Of a DNA stretch of 57,404 nucleotides, positions 10,365 through 52,500 are shown piece by piece; position 1 is the first letter of the stretch; each line of letters opens with the position of its first letter. A program made the position numbers and the translations under genes. Source of the DNA: Deferrivibrio essentukiensis. Its GTDB lineage: Bacteria > Chrysiogenota > Deferribacteres > Deferribacterales > Deferrivibrionaceae. The stretch spans positions 1 through 57,404 of the forward strand of contig NZ_JAJAFU010000016.1 of the NCBI RefSeq assembly GCF_020480685.1, read 5' to 3'. The notes under the pieces were generated by a model. That model searched no databases and was not told the origin of the DNA. It was given only the letters and a program-made list of their open reading frames with translations.

Positions 10365-11897
10365 TTATACCCTTTCCCACTCAAAATTTATTACATTCTT
10401 TTGTTCAGAGCTAAATTCGATGCCAATAAGATAGATTTGTTTGCCTTCATTTAAATATTTTTCGGCATAATTTCTTTCTTTGATTTGCCTTAAAGCTTCA
10501 CCTTGTTGCCCGTCAACCTTAAACTCTAAGATATAAATCTTATCCCCCACAAAAAGTGTCAAATCTATTCTGCCCTTATTTGTAATATCTTCACCGATTA
10601 TATTTATCCCAAGGGATGCAAGATATGCATAAATCACGCTGGCATAAAAACCTTCGTATAAATTAAGGTTATTTTTTGTAAAATTATTGTAAGGGATTGA
10701 GGCAAACAGTGAAGTCAACGCTACTTTAAAATCTTCTAACTTTTCATAATAAAGAGACTTGATTAGGGGACTTTTTAGTCTATTATCACCTTTAAACAGA
10801 TAATTTATAATATAATCATTCAACGATATTTGGACTTCAAGGTTTGGTATCTTTAGCTTGTACTCTATTGAGCTAAGCAATTCATCTTCTATCATCTTCT
10901 CAATCGTCAAATAACCCGACTGATACAAAATCACTTCCAAATCAATATTTTCTATATCAAAGCTGGAAAGTATTTTTTTATCTAATATCAGATTAGTTAA
11001 ACTCGGTAAAAAATAATTTCTCTCTTTTATGAGTTTAATCAAAAAAGATGGTGTGCCGCTTTCAAACCAATAATTATCAAATACAAATTCATTACTGATA
11101 AATTGCAAAATATCAAACGGATTATACACATTATCTTTTAAAAAATTATATCCATTATACCATTTTTTTACCTTCTCCAAATCCACATCTTTAAAATAAG
11201 GTAAAAATGAGGTTTCTATATCTTTTTGGGTATAGCCGCAGATATTGCCATACTTCGGATTGAGGGAGATATCCGTGAGCATATTGAGCCCGCTAAAAAT
11301 AGATGCCTTGGAAAATTTGCTCACGCCTGTCAAAAATGCAAATTTGATATAGGCATCGTTATCTTTGATTATAGAATACAAACCCTTGATAAACTCTCTA
11401 TTTATCTTAGCCTGTTCAATATTTTCTATCACATCAAGAATAGGTTTGTCATATTCGTCTATTAAAATTACTACCTTTTGGTTATATTTTTTGTATGCTC
11501 TATGGATTAAATCTCTAAAGCAGCTTGCAGGATCGTTTACATTATCACAGATGACGCCTAAACTCTCTTGATTTGTTTTAAACACATCAAAAGCAACTTG
11601 CTTTAAACCTTCAAGCGTTTGGAAATTACCAGCCCAGCTTATCTTTATTACCGGGTATTTTTCATTCCAATTCCACTTGTCATAAATATACAGACCTTCA
11701 AAAAGCTTTTTGTTCCCTTCAAATAATTCTTTTAATGTATCAAGAAATAATGACTTACCAAATCTGCGGGGGCGGGATAGAAATACATATTTGTATTCTT
11801 GAATTAGCTTATAAGCTTCTTCAGTCTTATCGATATAAACGTAGTTTCCTTCAATTATTTCACTGAATGTTTGTATTCCGATTGGGAGCTTTTTCAT
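10365..11897 (-). CDS. AAA-ATPase-like / PD-(D/E)XK nuclease domain protein
   Basis: A 510-residue two-domain protein of the common AAA-ATPase_like (DUF1703-associated) family. The N terminus has the family hallmark FSEIIEGNYVYIDKTE followed by SRPRRFGKSLFLDTL, a Walker A-like loop near residue 43, and VVILIDEYDKP as Walker B near 145. The C terminus has a PD-(D/E)XK nuclease signature: GRIDLTLFVGDK then ILEFKV, and QIKERNYAEKY, all intact near residues 445-490. Members are multi-copy in many anaerobes; their role is unproven, and mobile or defence associations have been proposed. The ribosome binding site GGAGACGATT precedes the ATG. It stands alone, with repeat modules directly after its stop. 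Confidence 0.88.
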   Translation of the reverse strand: MKKLPIGIQTFSEIIEGNYVYIDKTEEAYKLIQEYKYVFLSRPRRFGKSLFLDTLKELFEGNKKLFEGLYIYDKWNWNEKYPVIKISWAGNFQTLEGLKQVAFDVFKTNQESLGVICDNVNDPASCFRDLIHRAYKKYNQKVVILIDEYDKPILDVIENIEQAKINREFIKGLYSIIKDNDAYIKFAFLTGVSKFSKASIFSGLNMLTDISLNPKYGNICGYTQKDIETSFLPYFKDVDLEKVKKWYNGYNFLKDNVYNPFDILQFISNEFVFDNYWFESGTPSFLIKLIKERNYFLPSLTNLILDKKILSSFDIENIDLEVILYQSGYLTIEKMIEDELLSSIEYKLKIPNLEVQISLNDYIINYLFKGDNRLKSPLIKSLYYEKLEDFKVALTSLFASIPYNNFTKNNLNLYEGFYASVIYAYLASLGINIIGEDITNKGRIDLTLFVGDKIYILEFKVDGQQGEALRQIKERNYAEKYLNEGKQIYLIGIEFSSEQKNVINFEWERV

Positions 11898-12171: not shown

Positions 12172-12894
12172 TTAATTTTTACCACAGCACTTTTTGTATT
12201 TTTTACCACTGCCGCAGGGGCATAAATCATTACGCCCAATTTTTTCTTTTTTATTTTGAGTTTTATTTAAATTTTCTTTAAACTTTTTCTTTCTTTCATC
12301 CAAAAACATTTCCCCGACTGCTTTTATACCTTCAACAGCACTTGGTATTATTTTATAAATCAATTTTTTGTCAACATTATCTTCTTGTACTAAATATTCA
12401 TTTAAAGTGTCAGGGTAAGCTGCACTAAATATAATCCCCAAAAAATAGGTATAAAGTTCTTTTTCTTTTGAAGGTTTTTTAAGGTCTTCAGGGTTAGGAA
12501 ACCATATTTCAGGTCTCATTTTAAATGCAGAAAAAAGACCCTTTGCCCAATCTGAAATTTCAGCCATATATTCATCAGTTAAATCTTCATCTTTTATTAC
12601 GTCGACAAGTATCTTAAACTTTTGATTTTCTGCAGCATAAATATAAGCATTATAAGCTTTCATAAGATTATCTACAAAAAGGCTCATTTCTTCTTGAGAT
12701 TCAAATATCGGTTCTTCGTTTCCAAATATTTCAGGCATATATTCACTTAGAAATATAACATCAGGCGTTAATGCAATACCGAAAAGAAACCCTTCAAGCT
12801 CAGCGACATTCATCGCTCCATCTACTTTTTCAAGAATCTTTTTAAAAACCTCTTTTTGCTTTTTGTTAAGAATATCTACCATAAACGCCGGCAT
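12172..12894 (-). CDS. UPF0149/YecA-like protein with C-terminal SEC-C zinc motif
   Basis: A 240-residue cytoplasmic protein. The N-terminal 170 residues match the UPF0149 (YgfB/YecA) helical fold in layout ([15 protein letters not shown] near the start). The last 22 residues are a SEC-C motif, [18 protein letters not shown], a zinc-binding tail like that of SecA, which can recognise ribosomes or other partners. TAGGAG lies 8 nt before the first ATG, so I keep that start over the second Met at residue 5. It has no close operon partner. The function is unknown; SEC-C adaptors have been linked to protein quality control. Confidence 0.85.
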
Positions 12895-13285
12895 TTCAAC
12901 ATCTCCTACAACATATTTGGCAGTGCTTAAGGATATTTACTATAAATTTAAGTATTTGTCGAGTATTCAAAGGCGACCGTCAGCTATTTTTTATACATCT
13001 AAACTACAATTAAACTTTTCCTCATTTATTCAAATAACAGAGAGCAAGAATAAGCACAGATTTAACTTTATATCTTATGCAAATTTATTTTCAAAACTTT
13101 TTAGATAGGCCATAAAAATCTTGGTTTACATTTACTTTACTAAAATCAAAAAACACGTTAAAATTTATATAGTGTGTTGTGCCTGCCTATATTTATTGTA
13201 TTTTACAATAAATTTGTGCGGGGTGATTATTGTAATACACCTTATATTTTAATTTTTAGCAATATTATTATTCAGAGGTTTGATG
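12895..13285. other. Intergenic region with a perfect inverted repeat
   Basis: Divergent spacer between the SEC-C gene and the restriction relic. Bases 13191-13213 form a 10-bp perfect inverted repeat (ATTTATTGTA, 3-nt loop, TACAATAAAT) without a following T-run, so it is more like an operator than a terminator. No believable gene; a chance plus-strand frame at 12863-13108 starts inside the SEC-C gene. Confidence 0.5.
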
Positions 13286-15114
13286 ATGTCTGAAAAAGAA
13301 GCTAAGGCAAGAATAAAAATAAACAAGCTCCTCGAAGAAGCCGGCTGGAGATTTTTCGATACAGCAGATGGTAAAGCAAATATTTTACTGGAAAATAATG
13401 TTAAAATAACTGAGAAAAAGCTAAATGAGTTTGGTGAAAATTTCGAACATACAAAAAATGGATTTATTGACTTTTTGCTCCTTGACGAAAAAGGCTTTCC
13501 ATTGGTTGTTTTAGAAGCAAAAGCTGAAACCAAAAACCCGCTTTTTGGCAAAGAGCAAGCCAGAAAATACGCACAATCTCAAAATTGTCGCTTTGTTATC
13601 CTTTCCAATGGAAATATCCACTATTTCTGGGATATAGAAAGGGGGAATCCTCAATTAATAAGCAAATTCCCCTCTCAAGAAACTCTAAAAGGGTATGAAA
13701 ATTTCAAGCCAGATAAAAATAGACTCGTAGAAGAGATAGTTAAGGAAGATTATATTGTTTTAACACAATACCCTGATTATAAAAATGATCCTTCATACAA
13801 AGATGAAAAAATCAGGAACAAATTTATAACTGAAAATAAATTGCGTTTCTTAAGAAAATATCAATTATTGGCCATAAAATCTATACAAAGTGCTGTTAAA
13901 AAAGGGAAGGATAGATTTCTTTTTGAAATGGCAACAGGCACGGGGAAAACTCTCGTCTCAGCAGCAGTAATTAAATTATTCCTACGCACTGGCAATGCCC
14001 GTCGGGTATTGTTTTTGGTGGATAGACTTGAGCTTGAAAATCAGGCATACAAAGCCTTTAGAGACTATCTTAAAAATGATTATACTACTGTTATTTATAA
14101 AGAAAATAGGGATGATTGGCGAAAAGCAGAAATTGTTGTTTCCACTATTCAAACTTTTCTTTCTAAAAATAGATATAAAAGAATCTTTTCTCCTGATGAC
14201 TTTGACCTTGTGATTTCTGATGAAGCTCACAGAAGTATAGGCGGTAATAGCAGAGCTGTATTTGATTATTTTATAGGTTACAAACTTGGGCTTACTGCCA
14301 CCCCAAAAAACTACTTAAAAAATATAAATATTTCAAAACTTGGTGAAAATGACCCTCGACAATTGGAAAAAAGATTGCTTCTTGATACCTATAAAACTTT
14401 TGGTTGTGAAGATGGTGAGAGCCAACATATAGGTACTCTCTTATTGATGGTGTCAAAGACGGTTTTCTCGTAAATCCTATTGTTATAGATGCCCGCACTG
14501 AAGTAACTACCCAATTAATTTCAGATGAAGGTTATGCTGTAACTGTTAAAAATGAAGAAGGAAATGAGGCAGAAGAAACTTTTATTCACAAAGACTTTGA
14601 AAAAAAATTCTTTTCTGAAAATACAAATAGAGCTTTTTGCAAAGCATTTTTAGAAAATGCACTTTTTGATCCAATTAGTGGGGAGATAGGAAAAGCTATC
14701 GTATTCTGTGTCTCTCAAAATCATGCAGCAAAAATTTCTCAAATCCTAAATGAAATGGCACATCAAATGTTTCCTGAAAAATATAATTCAGACTTTGCTA
14801 TTCAGGTGACATCAAATATTCACGATGCCCAACAGTTCACTATTAATTTTACAAATAACAATCTTTCAGGCTCAGGAAACTTTGATTCCGCCTATAAAAC
14901 AAGTAAGACAAGGGTATGTGTCACGGTGGGTATGATGACTACCGGATACGATTGTCCTGACATTTTAAATATTTGTCTAATAAGACCAATCTTTTCTCCA
15001 ACAGAATTTATCCAGATAAAGGGGAGAGGGACGAGAAAACATAATTTTGTAAATGACCTTACTGATATTAGAGGAAAGTTTATCGGAAATTTCCCGATAG
15101 TATATTGGTTCTGA
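13286..15114 (+). pseudogene. Type I restriction R subunit (HsdR-like), frameshifted and truncated
   Basis: A broken restriction-translocase gene. The first frame (13286 to about 14421) has the N-terminal nuclease region (GFIDFLLLDEKG then VVLEAKAE, a PD-ExK pattern), Walker A ATGTGKT near residue 220, ISDEAHRS and LTATP. At about 14420 reading moves by two bases in GGTGAGAGCCA; removing one GA restores a family-like continuation GE-PTYRYSLIDGVKDGFLVNP that runs to 15114 and includes TVGMMTTGYDCPD and IKGRGTRKHNF. After that the protein loses homology and ends, so the C-terminal third is missing. A fragment of a specificity region follows directly. I use the ATG at 13286 because AGAGG sits 7 nt upstream. 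No intact hsdM or hsdS is nearby. Confidence 0.88.
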
Positions 15115-15279
15115 GGCATATGAAAGTAGAATTTGAGATCCCTTCCTCCCCTTGAAGTCCAGCAGCGTATTGTCGATAAAATCAAATCCGAGCAGAAGAT
15201 AATCGACGGCCTGAAGGAGATGGTGAAAAACTATGAGGAGAAGATAAATCGGGTGATTGATAAGGTGTGGGGGGAGTGA
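15099..15279 (+). pseudogene. Type I specificity-domain C-terminal tail (HsdS or HsdM-S remnant)
   Basis: A remnant of the end of a type I DNA-specificity gene. The frame ending at the TGA at 15277 reads LPPLEVQQRIVDKI, then KIIDGLKEMVKNYEEKINRVIDKVWGE, the conserved end of a target-recognition half-repeat, as found in HsdS or methylase-specificity fusions. The preceding residues MKVEFEIP lie in the neighbouring frame, so one base is missing near 15142. The stretch is more G+C-rich than its surroundings. It joins the HsdR remnant directly, so a deletion has removed the methylase and most of the specificity gene. Confidence 0.8.
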
Positions 15280-15283
15280 AACT

Positions 15284-15505
15284 CTGTGCCCTCTGTGGTT
15301 AAAAAACTGTGAACAGTTAAAAGTAAATGGTGAATGGTGAATAGTGAATAGTGAACTGTGAGTCTTGGACAAAAAATAAATTGTGTAAGTTAATATGAGG
15401 TGTAAAGGTTGTAAAGGGTATGAAGGTGTAAAGGTTATAAAAGGTGTAAAGGTTTTAGAGACTAAAACATAATACTTAATACTAAATTCTAACCTCTGCG
15501 TCCTC
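15284..15505 (+). repeat. Dispersed modular repeat, copy C
   Basis: Modules in order: CTCTGTGGTTAAAAAACTGTG, GTGAATAGTGAA steps, a core (GTCTTGGACAAAAAATAAAT, TGTGTAAGTTAATATGAG at 15362-15399), GTAAAGGTTGTAAAGG steps, TACTTAATACTAAATTC, and an end AACCTCTGCGTCCTCTATTG. It begins directly after the stop of the specificity-tail remnant and reads in the same sense. The core is identical over about 38 nt to copy D at 27.0 kb. Confidence 0.85.
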
Positions 15506-15858: not shown

Positions 15859-18369
15859 ATGCCTTGTTTAAACAGGAGGAACTTCTTAAAGCTAAGTGCA
15901 GGGGCTGCACTGTCAGGAAGTTTACTTTCTCTAAAAGAGTCGCACGCAAAGGTTACACCTTTGGATTTTGGTGTAGAAAAAAAAGTACCTGTTTTGTGTA
16001 GGATGTGTGCCCAATTCTGCCCAATGATAGCAGTAGTTAGAGACTCGAGAGTAATAAGAATAGAGTCAAATAAAAACACACCACATTCAGGTATTTGTGC
16101 CAGAGGGAGGGCAGCAACAGCTGCGTTGTACAACCCAAACAGGATTAAACAGCCTTTAATCAGAGTAGGTAAAAGGGGAGAAGGAAAGTTCAAACCGATT
16201 TCTTGGGATGATGCTTTAAAAATTATTTCAGATAAACTTATCAACTTAAAAAATAACGGTGAAGAGCACCTGGTTGCTTTTTTACCAAGATTTAATAGTG
16301 CACCAGGAATGGATAAAGAATTTTTTACTATTTACGGCACCCCAAATATTGTAGGATACGGGGATACCTGTTTTGGCAACTCATTAATTGTAAGCTATGG
16401 TTCAATTATGGGTGGTAAGGAAGATAAAGGTGTACCTGGGGGCGGAACGGGCGCATTAAGTCCTGATTATGAAAATGCTAAATACGGGATTCTTATCGGC
16501 AGAAATCCAGGTGGCGGACTTGTAACTTTCCCTTGGGGAATTATGTATGGAAAAGGTAGAAGAAATGGTTTAAAAGTTACAGTTATTGATCCAAGAAAGC
16601 CATCAGAGGCAGGGGAAAGTCTTACCGAATGGCTACCGATAAGCCCCGGTACAGATTTAGCCCTTTTACTTGCTATAGCAAACACAATTTTGACCTCCGG
16701 AAAATTTAACAAAGAATATCTTAAAAAGCATACAAACGCACCTATGCTTATAGACAGCGAAGGGAAACCTGTCCATTTTGAAAACATAGATGACAAACAT
16801 ATAGATTTTCTTGTATATGACGAAGACGATAAACAATTTAAGCTTTCTAAAGATGCATCAAACCCTTCATTGACGGGAGAATTCGAATATAATGGAGTTA
16901 AAGTTACTACTGCTTTGACTGCATTAATAAACTCCTCAAAGCAATTTACACCTGAATGGGCGGAAAAAGTTACAAGTGTGCCTGCCAATAAAATTAAAAA
17001 TGTCGCAGAAAATCTAATTAACAATGCACCTCAAGTGTTTATAGAAAGAGGATACAGGTCTACAAGATATGATAATTCAATGGAAGAGAAAAGGGTAATT
17101 CTGATTATAAACACTCTATTAGGAAGTATAGGCACAAAAGGGGGGATGATTATTCAAAGAGGTGTAAAGACTGGCAGCTTTATAAAAGCACCTAAACCGG
17201 AACAAAAGCCTATCTCACACTATTACCGAAAATTCAGTGAATACTCGTTAATAAATACTAAAGATTACAGAAGATTTTTTATAAAGTCACTCCTTGAAGA
17301 AAAACCATACAAGTGCAAAGTGGCAGTGTTTTGGGGTCAGAATATAATTGGCGGCTCTACAGGTAGTGAAGAAATTATTCAAGCATTGGAAAAGCTTGAA
17401 ACAATAGTCGCTATTTCCCCCTATTTCAATGAAACAGTACTTTATGCTGATATAATAATTCCTGATGCAATGTTTTTGGAAAGGGATGAAGCCATTCGTA
17501 CAAAATTTAAAGCACCTTACCCTACCATTGCTGTCCACAAAAAGGCTGTTGAGCCTCTTTTTGGTGCAAAAGAGGGTTACTGGATAGTTAATGAGCTTGC
17601 AAAAAGAGTTTTGGACTCAGAAACATATAATACATACTTTAGTCATTACAACGAAAAAGGGATTAATGCTATTTTAGATAAGCAACTTTCCAAAGTAGAA
17701 GGATTATCAGAAGATGAGCTACAAACATTTTCGCCAGACTCACTATTTGAAAAAGGGGTATGGACTGGAAATATAAAATACGGGGTAAAGGCAAAAACAA
17801 AGTCTAAAAAAATCGAAATATACAGTACTTTCTTTTTGGAAAAACATTTTGAACTAAAAGCGGCAAATGAAAAGTTGGCAAGTATATTAGACCCTGGCTT
17901 TAAATATCAGCCCCCATACTGGAAAACAGAAAAAGAAACATTAGACAAAGATGAGTTTATACCGGTAACAGGCTTTAACCCATTAAGCTCATTTACAGGC
18001 GCACAAACAAAAGATAACCCTATTTTAAACTTCCTTGGTGGCATGGTAGATTGGGATGCAATATATATCAACAAATCAAAAGGGGAAAAAATTGGGCTTA
18101 AAGATGGGGATATTGTTGAAGTTTTTAATATTCAAAAGCCCCATCTTGTTACTAAAACCAAAATAAAACTTGTAGAATATGTACACCCTGACGCCTTATT
18201 TTCATATTATGGAGTAGGTGCTGGATATTATAACAATCTTACAAACTTTTTAACCAATGCGCCAAAATATGGATTTAATCCTAATCATATAGGAAACTTT
18301 ACCTTTGCCGCACTTGATGGCGGGCAACTGGCTCAAGACTTTATTGTTAAAATCAGGAGGGCAAAATGA
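15859..18369 (+). CDS. phsA: Thiosulfate/polysulfide reductase catalytic subunit, molybdopterin
   Basis: An 836-residue molybdopterin oxidoreductase exported by the Tat system: NRRNFLK at residues 5-11, a hydrophobic stretch and a likely cleavage site near Ala30. A [4Fe-4S] site is formed by Cys47, Cys50, Cys54 and Cys80 (CRMCAQFC ... GIC). Cys171 in GDTCFGN sits where the molybdenum-ligating Cys of PsrA/PhsA-type enzymes lies. The C terminus has the dinucleotide-binding barrel (LKDGDIVEVFN near 755). With the four-cluster subunit and the cytochrome b encoded next, this is a periplasm-facing respiratory reductase. The three-gene make-up fits PhsABC (thiosulfate) better than NrfD-type PsrABC; tetrathionate or another sulfur or oxyanion substrate is not excluded. 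The symbol is a family-level guess. Confidence 0.85.
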   Translation: MPCLNRRNFLKLSAGAALSGSLLSLKESHAKVTPLDFGVEKKVPVLCRMCAQFCPMIAVVRDSRVIRIESNKNTPHSGICARGRAATAALYNPNRIKQPLIRVGKRGEGKFKPISWDDALKIISDKLINLKNNGEEHLVAFLPRFNSAPGMDKEFFTIYGTPNIVGYGDTCFGNSLIVSYGSIMGGKEDKGVPGGGTGALSPDYENAKYGILIGRNPGGGLVTFPWGIMYGKGRRNGLKVTVIDPRKPSEAGESLTEWLPISPGTDLALLLAIANTILTSGKFNKEYLKKHTNAPMLIDSEGKPVHFENIDDKHIDFLVYDEDDKQFKLSKDASNPSLTGEFEYNGVKVTTALTALINSSKQFTPEWAEKVTSVPANKIKNVAENLINNAPQVFIERGYRSTRYDNSMEEKRVILIINTLLGSIGTKGGMIIQRGVKTGSFIKAPKPEQKPISHYYRKFSEYSLINTKDYRRFFIKSLLEEKPYKCKVAVFWGQNIIGGSTGSEEIIQALEKLETIVAISPYFNETVLYADIIIPDAMFLERDEAIRTKFKAPYPTIAVHKKAVEPLFGAKEGYWIVNELAKRVLDSETYNTYFSHYNEKGINAILDKQLSKVEGLSEDELQTFSPDSLFEKGVWTGNIKYGVKAKTKSKKIEIYSTFFLEKHFELKAANEKLASILDPGFKYQPPYWKTEKETLDKDEFIPVTGFNPLSSFTGAQTKDNPILNFLGGMVDWDAIYINKSKGEKIGLKDGDIVEVFNIQKPHLVTKTKIKLVEYVHPDALFSYYGVGAGYYNNLTNFLTNAPKYGFNPNHIGNFTFAALDGGQLAQDFIVKIRRAK

Positions 18370-26826: not shown

Positions 26827-27150
26827 ATACTTTATAACTATTTGGCTAAAAAGGCAATAATTTTGTTACCTCAGCGATATTTTTTGTATCTCTATAATTC
26901 AATGCTAAAAATGTTCAAGGTTCTAAGTATTAAGTATTAAGTGTTAAGTTTTAGCCTCTAAAACCTTTACAACTTTTATAACCTTTTCAACTCATATTAA
27001 CTTACACAATTTATTTTTTGTCCAAGACTCACTGTTCACAATTCACTTTTCACTATTCACAAATCTTGTACCCTTCAATGTTCTTTCGTAGCACATTATT
27101 TTTTTAACCACAGATGATTAGATTGCATACTTTTTAAGAGGATATTTTAA
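26827..27150. other. Intergenic region: znuA promoter and repeat element D
   Basis: The right edge is the 3' end of the C-GCAxxG-C-C gene and the left edge the znuA promoter. Repeat element D fills most of it. No gene was seen. Confidence 0.6.
26910..27116 (-). repeat. Dispersed modular repeat, copy D
   Basis: Read on the minus strand: CTGTGGTTAAAAAAATA, GTGAATAGTGAAAAGTGAAT, the core GTCTTGGACAAAAAATAAAT with TGTGTAAGTTAATATGAG (26991-27031), AAGGTTATAAAAGTTGTAAA, TTTTAGAGGCTAAAACTTAA and CTTAATACTTAGAACCTTGA. It starts about 35 bases past the stop of the gene ending at 27151 and runs in that gene's sense. Confidence 0.85.
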
Positions 27151-33726: not shown

Positions 33727-33885
33727 GCAGTTATAAAACTGTAAACGGTGAAAAGTGAATCGTGAACAGAGATTTTGTGGACAAGCGATAAATTGTGTAA
33801 GCTAATATGAGTTATAAAGGTTGTAAAGGCTTAACACTTAACAGTTAATACTTAACACTAATAGTGAACGTTGAATAAAACGGGT
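33727..33885 (+). repeat. Dispersed modular repeat, copy E
   Basis: Modules: CAGTTATAAAACTGTAAACG, GTGAAAAGTGAATCGTGAAC, GATTTTGTGGACAAGCGATA, the core AAATTGTGTAAGCTAATATG, GTTATAAAGGTTGTAAAGG, TTAACACTTAACAGTTAATA and AACGTTGAAT. It lies between converging genes, starts about 25 bases after the antiporter stop and has the sense of that gene. It shares the core with copies C, D and F. Confidence 0.85.
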
Positions 33886-52302: not shown

Positions 52303-52500
52303 AATGACCGCAGAGAAGCACAAGGTTAATGCTAAGTGTTAAGAATGTTCAAGGTTCAACGTTCGAATTTAGTTCTAAGTGTTAAGCCTATAGAACCTTT
52401 ATAACATTTATAACTCATATTAACTTACACAATTTATTGTTTGCCAACAAAATCACTTTTCACTATTCACCTTTCACCATTCTCAGTTTTGTAACCGAAT
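52303..52500 (-). repeat. Dispersed modular repeat, copy F
   Basis: Read on the minus strand: CGGTTACAAAACTGAGAATG, GTGAAAGGTGAATAGTGAAA, GATTTTGTTGGCAAACAATA, the core AAATTGTGTAAGTTAATATG, GTTATAAATGTTATAAAGG, CTTAACACTTAGAACTAAAT, AACGTTGAACCTTGAAC and an end TTGTGCTTCTCTGCGGTCAT. It starts about 70 bases beyond the receptor stop, after its terminator, and runs in that gene's sense. Confidence 0.85.

What the first reader, a model, noticed from the sequence alone, without database searches (positions are those of the whole stretch)
13286..15279. Type I restriction locus caught mid-decay, with HsdR joined to a specificity tail
The R-subunit gene is shifted by two bases in a GAGAG run at about 14420, then loses its last third and runs into the tail of a target-recognition gene that itself lacks one base near 15142. 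The GAGAG setting makes a dinucleotide gain plausible, so the shift might even be phase-variable in origin, but the later deletion makes the locus non-functional for restriction. The motor and nuclease motifs are still intact, so the inactivation is recent.
Basis: seen in the sequence. Interest (0 to 1): 0.5.

Follow-up and report, generated by a model that had tools for sequence, protein, structure and literature searches.

The report
Recently dead restriction-system gene in Deferrivibrio
A bacterium of the genus Deferrivibrio carries the wreck of a foreign DNA-cutting defence system that slipped into its chromosome not long ago and has already been broken by one large deletion and two small shifts; this is an ordinary fate for such genes, though the insertion scar is unusually clear.

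Summary
hsdR reads open from 13286, shifts by two bases at GAGAG (14417-14421), continues to about 15069, then joins the tail of a specificity gene that is one base short near 15142. Intact relatives show the full form: HsdR of about 850 aa, and HsdM and HsdS fused in one protein. The window keeps about 595 of 847 HsdR residues and the last 46-69 codons of HsdMS; the lost 3.2-3.3 kb (measured on Calditerrivibrio) is nowhere else in this genome. Two congeners have an empty site there (18 bases against 2256), so the locus was probably gained in this lineage. The retained HsdR shows little sign of relaxed constraint (1 deviation at 203 conserved positions; median of the set 1), so death is recent. 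Phase variation is not supported, and no fusion protein is made. The insert's right end is a CTCTGTG repeat that a Spirochaetota MAG also carries directly behind hsdS; the empty site holds a related repeat, and the left end resembles an inverted copy. Integration at a shared repeat is possible but unproven. Verdict: a decayed type I restriction locus, a known kind, of modest interest.

The parts
13035..15290 (+). inserted segment absent from both congeneric genomes G001 and G002 (2256 bases against 18)
   Evidence: blastn of window against L125 and L126; synteny with G001
13033..13059 (-). left edge of the insert: degenerate inverted copy of the CTCTGTG-type repeat (weak)
   Evidence: local alignment score 29 to the empty-site repeat, reached by 0.085% of 8195 window 41-mers read on the same strand
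13286..14416 (+). hsdR first part (377 codons in frame): nuclease PD-ExK, Walker A, DEAH and GLTATP motifs
14417..14421 (+). GAGAG, where the reading frame shifts by two bases relative to the intact relative
   Evidence: alignment with C. nitroreducens hsdR
14422..15069 (+). hsdR second part: helicase C half with TTGYD and QIKGRGTR motifs; its frame runs on to a stop at 15112
15069..15072 (.). approximate deletion junction: about 252 HsdR residues and all but the end of HsdMS are missing
   Evidence: the S side cannot be placed to the base because target-recognition domains differ between relatives
15072..15279 (+). tail of the S half of an HsdM-HsdS fusion, with a one-base shift near 15142, stop at 15277-15279
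15282..15305 (+). right edge of the insert: CTCTGTG tandem repeat running into the recipient sequence
   Evidence: near-identical sequence directly behind the hsdMS stop in L045; the tandem motif occurs once in G000; related repeat in the empty site
12172..12894 (-). left flank gene: UPF0149/SEC-C protein, conserved in both congeners
15859..18369 (+). right flank gene: molybdopterin oxidoreductase (my reading of the sequence, no family search), next to the left flank gene in both congeners

Best explanation
A type I restriction-modification locus made of EcoAI-like hsdR and an hsdM-hsdS fusion entered this Deferrivibrio lineage by horizontal transfer. It landed between a UPF0149/SEC-C gene and a molybdopterin oxidoreductase gene. 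It is now dead. An internal deletion (3.2-3.3 kb measured on the C. nitroreducens locus) took the C-terminal 30% of HsdR, the methyltransferase and both target-recognition domains, leaving only the S tail. A two-base shift in hsdR and a one-base shift in the S tail came before or after it. The first shift makes translation leave the HsdR frame after residue 377 and stop at 395, inside the motor, and M and S are gone, so no restriction or methylation is expected. Shown: the lesions, the empty sites, the absence of the lost parts from the assembly, the lack of clear relaxed constraint. Inferred: horizontal origin, order of lesions, loss of function.
For: Motifs and profiles in both parts. Intact relatives: C. 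nitroreducens 88% identity over residues 1-380 with hsdR 851 aa and hsdMS 865 aa; L045 86%, hsdR 847 and hsdMS 878 aa. Lost parts absent from G000. Empty site in 2 of 2 congeners held. Retained HsdR: 1 deviation at 203 positions conserved in at least 97%, median 1 over 67 sequences, the window ranking 40 of 67 with ties. Relatives of at least 66% identity over HsdR part one occur in contigs labelled with many phyla (80 loci kept of 362 found), and 56 of 463 matching plasmid records are 60-80% identical, so the gene moves.
Against: Reads were not available, so the two small shifts could be errors, though the large deletion could not. The window's own branch is somewhat long at amino-acid sites: terminal dN 0.050 against 0.037 (L045) and 0.035 (C. 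nitroreducens) in the nearest trio, which leaves room for some relaxed evolution. Synonymous sites are saturated (pS 0.73-0.76 to these two), so age rests on the empty sites and the constraint test, which has little power for very few changes. The donor is unknown, and the stretch upstream of hsdR gave no blastn match in the ten loci searched. Loss from both congeners instead of gain here is not formally excluded.
Confidence: 0.88

Rival explanations
1. The locus arrived already broken: a fragment carrying both ends of the operon but not its middle was integrated, so it never worked in this genome.
For: No M or S gene of this system was found in G000 apart from the tail; nothing shows that the whole operon was ever present in this lineage; 5' fragments of the same hsdR also lie in two order-level relatives (second site of G003, and G022), so broken copies are left behind elsewhere too. 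A third short match, G010, ends at its contig end and says nothing.
Against: The HsdR part carries little damage and both operon ends are kept, including the repeat directly behind hsdS, which fits whole-operon arrival followed by one internal deletion at least as well.
Confidence: 0.3
2. Sequencing or assembly error: the gene is intact in the living strain.
For: Draft assembly of 64 contigs; the one-base shift lies in a short run of one base; no reads available.
Against: The large deletion with an S tail joined on cannot come from base errors; the lost parts are absent from a genome rated 100% complete; of 12 gaps not divisible by three in 34,042 aligned coding bases, ten compensate one another within a gene and two lie about 33 bases from a gene end.
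Confidence: 0.05
3. A phase-variable or otherwise switchable hsdR in which the GAGAG run turns expression on and off.
For: A dinucleotide gain in a very short GA run is the first lesion.
Against: The run is too short; the intact relative aligned there has no repeat tract; switching could not bring back the missing parts, which are absent from the genome.
Confidence: 0.01
4. The truncated product of 395 aa (nuclease domain plus first motor lobe) keeps a function of its own, for example as a regulator or decoy.
For: The reading frame is open to 14470 and its in-frame part is well conserved.
Against: It ends inside the motor, lacks the later helicase motifs, and has no partner subunits of its kind in the genome; conservation is explained as well by recent death.
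Confidence: 0.03

Closest known systems
EcoAI/FtnUII family type I HsdR (NCBIfam NF046051; EcoAI is the type IB prototype, passage of PMC3874165)
   Same: Profile match over model positions 1-327 and 330-514 of 768 in the two parts; the six nuclease and motor motifs searched for are present.
   Different: Each part scores far below the family's curated cut-off of 550 bits (163 and 86); C-terminal region absent; two reading frames.
hsdR-hsdMS locus of Calditerrivibrio nitroreducens (G003; named by matching chromosome length 2,157,835 bp)
   Same: HsdR 88% identical over residues 1-380; S tail DNA 86% over 137 bases.
   Different: Intact, at another chromosomal place, followed by two further genes (669 and 423 aa) where the window has only the S tail and repeat.
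Type I system with HsdM fused to HsdS, called 'Type IMS' in PMC3510504 (passages read)
   Same: Relatives of the window's locus have M and S in one frame (48 of 54 loci with a near-complete HsdM).
   Different: That paper made the fusion from EcoKI in the laboratory; here only the S tail survives.
Other decayed type I loci (a known theme by general knowledge; 58 papers hold at least five of six such search terms, listing only)
   Same: Restriction genes broken by frameshifts or deletions.
   Different: Not read and not compared in sequence.

Membership tests
Type I restriction-modification system (EcoAI-like) | HsdR N-terminal nuclease domain with PD-ExK core | tested here: met
   HSDR_N E = 7.2e-07; motif present as in 66 of 66 intact copies
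Type I restriction-modification system (EcoAI-like) | Superfamily 2 motor motifs (Walker A, DEAH, GLTATP, TTGYD, QxKGRGTR) | tested here: met
   all present across the two frames
Type I restriction-modification system (EcoAI-like) | HsdR C-terminal region | tested here: not met
   residues after about 595 of 847 are missing and have 0 matches in G000
Type I restriction-modification system (EcoAI-like) | HsdM methyltransferase of the same system | tested here: not met
   the L045 HsdMS query finds in G000 the S tail (74%) and two matches of 22-25% identity on contig C9
Type I restriction-modification system (EcoAI-like) | HsdS with two target-recognition domains | tested here: not met
   46-69 codons of tail only
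Type I restriction-modification system (EcoAI-like) | DNA cleavage and methylation activity | not testable with these tools
   no methylation data or strain
Phase-variable type I system | Long simple-sequence tract in a coding or promoter region | tested here: not met
   only GAGAG at the shift, not a tract in the intact relative; the promoter region was not searched for tracts separately
Phase-variable type I system | Second hsdS or S fragments of the same system for inversion or shuffling | tested here: not met
   no second copy of this S tail in G000
Self-mobile element | Transposase, integrase or recombinase inside the insert | tested here: not met
   ORFs of at least 60 aa in the insert are hsdR pieces or frames overlapping hsdR or the S tail; Pfam on the three main pieces finds no such domain
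Self-mobile element | Terminal inverted repeats | tested here: inconclusive
   left edge resembles an inverted copy of the right-edge repeat, score reached by under 0.1% of window 41-mers; no target-site duplication seen in the printed junctions

The most novel reading that the evidence does not exclude
The restriction locus moved between phyla by using a shared CTCTGTG-type intergenic repeat as its docking site: a donor-like locus carries the repeat directly behind hsdMS, the recipient already had a relative of that repeat at the empty site, and the finished insert is bounded by what look like inverted copies of it. If general, such repeats would be a homology handle by which defence operons move without transposase or integrase. 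(Lowered from 0.2 on rechecking: the strict tandem motif is rare in the genomes and loci searched.)
Probability: 0.15. Interest if true: 0.5.

Novelty: new member of a known kind. Interest (0 to 1): 0.22.

Why it matters
It gives a clear before-and-after picture of how a restriction system comes and goes: an empty site in two sister species, an insertion in the third, and death while the protein sequence is still almost undamaged. It also shows that relatives of this locus mostly carry a natural HsdM-HsdS fusion, a form that the 2012 EcoKI work (PMC3510504, passages) discussed as an evolutionary intermediate. The repeat at the insertion edge is a testable lead on how such loci move. The broken gene itself is ordinary.

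Tried and rejected
Split-gene idea (the C-terminal part lies elsewhere): rejected, 0 matches in G000. Phase variation: rejected. Sequencing error as a full explanation: rejected because of the deletion and the low background. Dating by synonymous change: failed, pS saturated. Placing the S side of the deletion to the base: failed, because target-recognition domains differ between relatives; the best matches reach back only to residue 2 (one locus) or 10 of the 69-residue tail query. Finding the donor: no locus seen is closer than 88% in HsdR part one, and L045 and C. nitroreducens are equally distant (dN 0.086 and 0.085). Rfam over the window found one tRNA only. A literature search for the repeat by its letters returned unrelated papers (25 of 10,517 listed, none read) and a search for heptamer repeats listed other repeat families (15 of 19 listed, none read), so I can say only that these two searches did not show it. 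An S-tail array behind hsdMS in L087 looked odd but is a plain 189-base tandem repeat. On rechecking I dropped G010 from the list of hsdR fragments, because its match runs to the contig end.

Full report
What was checked. The window is G000:C16:1-57404, from a 2.36-Mb genome in 64 contigs rated 100% complete. Its genus is taken from G001, listed as same genus and identified below. hsdR opens at 13286 (start codons at 13280, 13283 and 13286) and runs 395 codons to a stop at 14471-14473, the last 18 of them out of the HsdR frame. A second open part in another frame carries on from 14422, and from 15072 the sequence reads as the tail of an S subunit. The NCBIfam model for EcoAI/FtnUII HsdR matches the first part at model positions 1-327 (E = 1.1e-47) and the second at 330-514 (E = 1.7e-24) of 768. 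The two pieces are therefore one gene, almost without a gap. The tail alone is a weak profile match to type I specificity subunits (PADLOC, E = 8.2e-5) but a clear one to relatives (below).

Intact relatives. Of 59 genomes searched, 33 had some match to HsdR part one. Three have long, closely similar copies: G003 (88% identity, 855-aa frame), G004 (69%, 840) and G054 (67%, 862). G003 is Calditerrivibrio nitroreducens by its chromosome length of 2,157,835 bp (passage read, PMC3072091). There hsdR (851 aa) is followed by one 865-aa protein that holds HsdM and HsdS in a single frame. A scan of GTDB genome contigs found 362 relatives and kept 80 loci (L045-L124), the best being labelled a Spirochaetota MAG (L045, 86%) and an Ignavibacteriae MAG (L046, 85%); the labels of such bins can be wrong. 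Of 83 loci examined (these 80 plus G003, G004, G054; many are cut by contig ends), 54 had a near-complete HsdM of this kind, and in 48 of those the same frame also carried S behind it. The window's tail matches the end of these HsdMS proteins at 81% (G003), 77% (L045) and 78% (L046) over 47-50 residues.

The lesions. Against C. nitroreducens the window has two more bases at GAGAG, 14417-14421. HsdR similarity ends at about 15069, residue 595 of 847 in L045. The S-like reading begins at about 15072 in a third frame and shifts by one base near 15142. The HsdR frame stops at 15112, before the S tail, so there is no joined protein. In C. nitroreducens the stretch between the two matching ends is about 3.3 kb (L035 positions 8644 to 5348), or about 3.2 kb if the S-like reading from 15072 is counted; in L045 it would be larger, as one more gene lies between hsdR and hsdMS there. 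The HsdR C-terminus of L045 has 0 matches in G000, and its HsdMS finds in G000 only the tail at 15139-15276 plus two matches of 22-25% identity. The deletion is real and no split gene was found.

Insertion. The flank genes at 12172-12894 and 15859-18369 are neighbours in both other genomes of the genus that the search returned, G001 and G002. G001 is Deferrivibrio metallireducens V6Fe1 by its length of 2,358,333 bp (passage read, PMC11896075). Aligned to these, the window matches up to 13034 and again from 15291. The relatives have 18 bases between those points, the window 2256. Flanks are 96-98% identical to G002 and 93-96% to G001. In all, about 36 kb of the window lies in seven matching segments of the 59.7 kb of G001 fetched. 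The simplest reading is gain in the G000 lineage after it split from these two.

Recent death. In an alignment of the retained HsdR with 66 full-length copies (66 of 83 loci; the other 17 were cut by contig ends or missed by my motif filter), 203 positions were at least 97% conserved. The window deviates at 1; the median over all 67 sequences is 1 and the maximum 7, and the window ranks 40 of 67 with ties. The six motifs tested are present. dN to L045 and C. nitroreducens is 0.086 and 0.085, against 0.072 between those two intact copies. In that trio the window's own branch is somewhat longer (0.050 against 0.037 and 0.035), so a short spell of relaxed change is possible. Synonymous sites are saturated and give no date. 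The damage is therefore young compared with the gene's divergence.

Error background. I took 49 of the 55 long ORFs, leaving out hsdR and five overlapping frames, and aligned what is shared with the G001 stretch. There were 34,042 aligned coding bases and 12 gaps not divisible by three. Ten of them compensate within one gene and two lie about 33 bases from a gene end. Two uncompensated shifts in 2.0 kb stand out against this, though no reads were seen.

Edges of the insert. In L045 the hsdMS stop is followed at once by AACTCTGTGCTTCTCTGTGCCCTCTGTGGTTAAAA. In the window the S-tail stop is followed by AACTCTGTGCCCTCTGTGGTTAAAA and then by recipient sequence. A tandem pair of this motif occurs 4 times in the 1.2 Mb of window and loci scanned, and two of these are the two places just named. 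Of eight genomes searched with a slightly looser pattern, G000 has it once, at this place; G001, G002, G003, G010 and G016 have none; G004 has 2 and G031 has 5, with 1 and 2 for the reversed control pattern. So the motif is not common in this order. The empty site in both congeners has a related repeat, 26 of 31 bases identical to L045's. The left edge, read on the other strand, aligns to the same repeat with a score reached by 0.085% of 8195 window 41-mers. So the right junction probably arose by exchange within a shared repeat, and the left edge may be an inverted copy. The left claim is weak, and I have no second insertion of this kind to test it.

How it works now. Type I restriction needs R bound to an M2S methyltransferase core (passages of PMC3874165). 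Here M and both recognition domains are gone and translation of R ends inside its motor, so neither cutting nor methylation is expected. G000 has a separate hsdM and hsdS on contig C9.

Novelty. A broken type I locus is a known kind. The value lies in the clear empty site, the evidence for recent death, the natural HsdMS fusions, and a modest lead about repeats at insertion edges. Of the papers, only listings were seen, and passages; no paper was read whole.

Noticed in passing
L035, L045, L066, L087, L122 behind hsdMS: A second copy of the S-tail DNA lies downstream of hsdMS in 5 of 45 loci that have the HsdMS end and at least 1 kb downstream. In L035 and L045 it brackets other genes: a 669-aa protein without a Pfam match (Argonaute-like only by my reading) plus a SIR2_2 protein, and a pair of which one is an AIPR protein. 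L087 is a plain tandem array.
   Followed up: partly
L045-L124, L035, L037, L038: HsdM and HsdS are fused in one frame in 48 of 54 loci with a near-complete HsdM of this family, in contigs labelled with many phyla.
   Followed up: partly
window 15330-15400, 26991-27060, 33741-33811, 52414-52482; G000:C1:224434-224533: A GTGAATGGTGAATAGTGAA-type repeat stretch behind the insert recurs at four other places of the genome, three of them in this window.
   Followed up: no
window 10365-11897: AAA-ATPase_like plus PDDEXK_9 gene of a family with many copies: 6 matches in G000, 18 in C. nitroreducens, 31 (mostly fragments) in G010. In C. nitroreducens one copy lies directly upstream of this hsdR and another directly upstream of the hsdR fragment.
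   Followed up: partly
G003:C2:1919593-1919928, G022:C58:14303-14624: 5' fragments of the same hsdR (112 residues at 79%; two overlapping pieces at 72-78%) in two order-level relatives. In G003 the fragment lies just before a different, 880-aa HsdR-like gene. A match in G010:C48 runs to the contig end and may be a whole gene cut there.
   Followed up: partly
G000:C9:70000-77140 (L039): A separate type I locus with intact hsdM (545 aa) and hsdS (367 aa), with two other genes between them; no hsdR was recognised before the contig ends.
   Followed up: no
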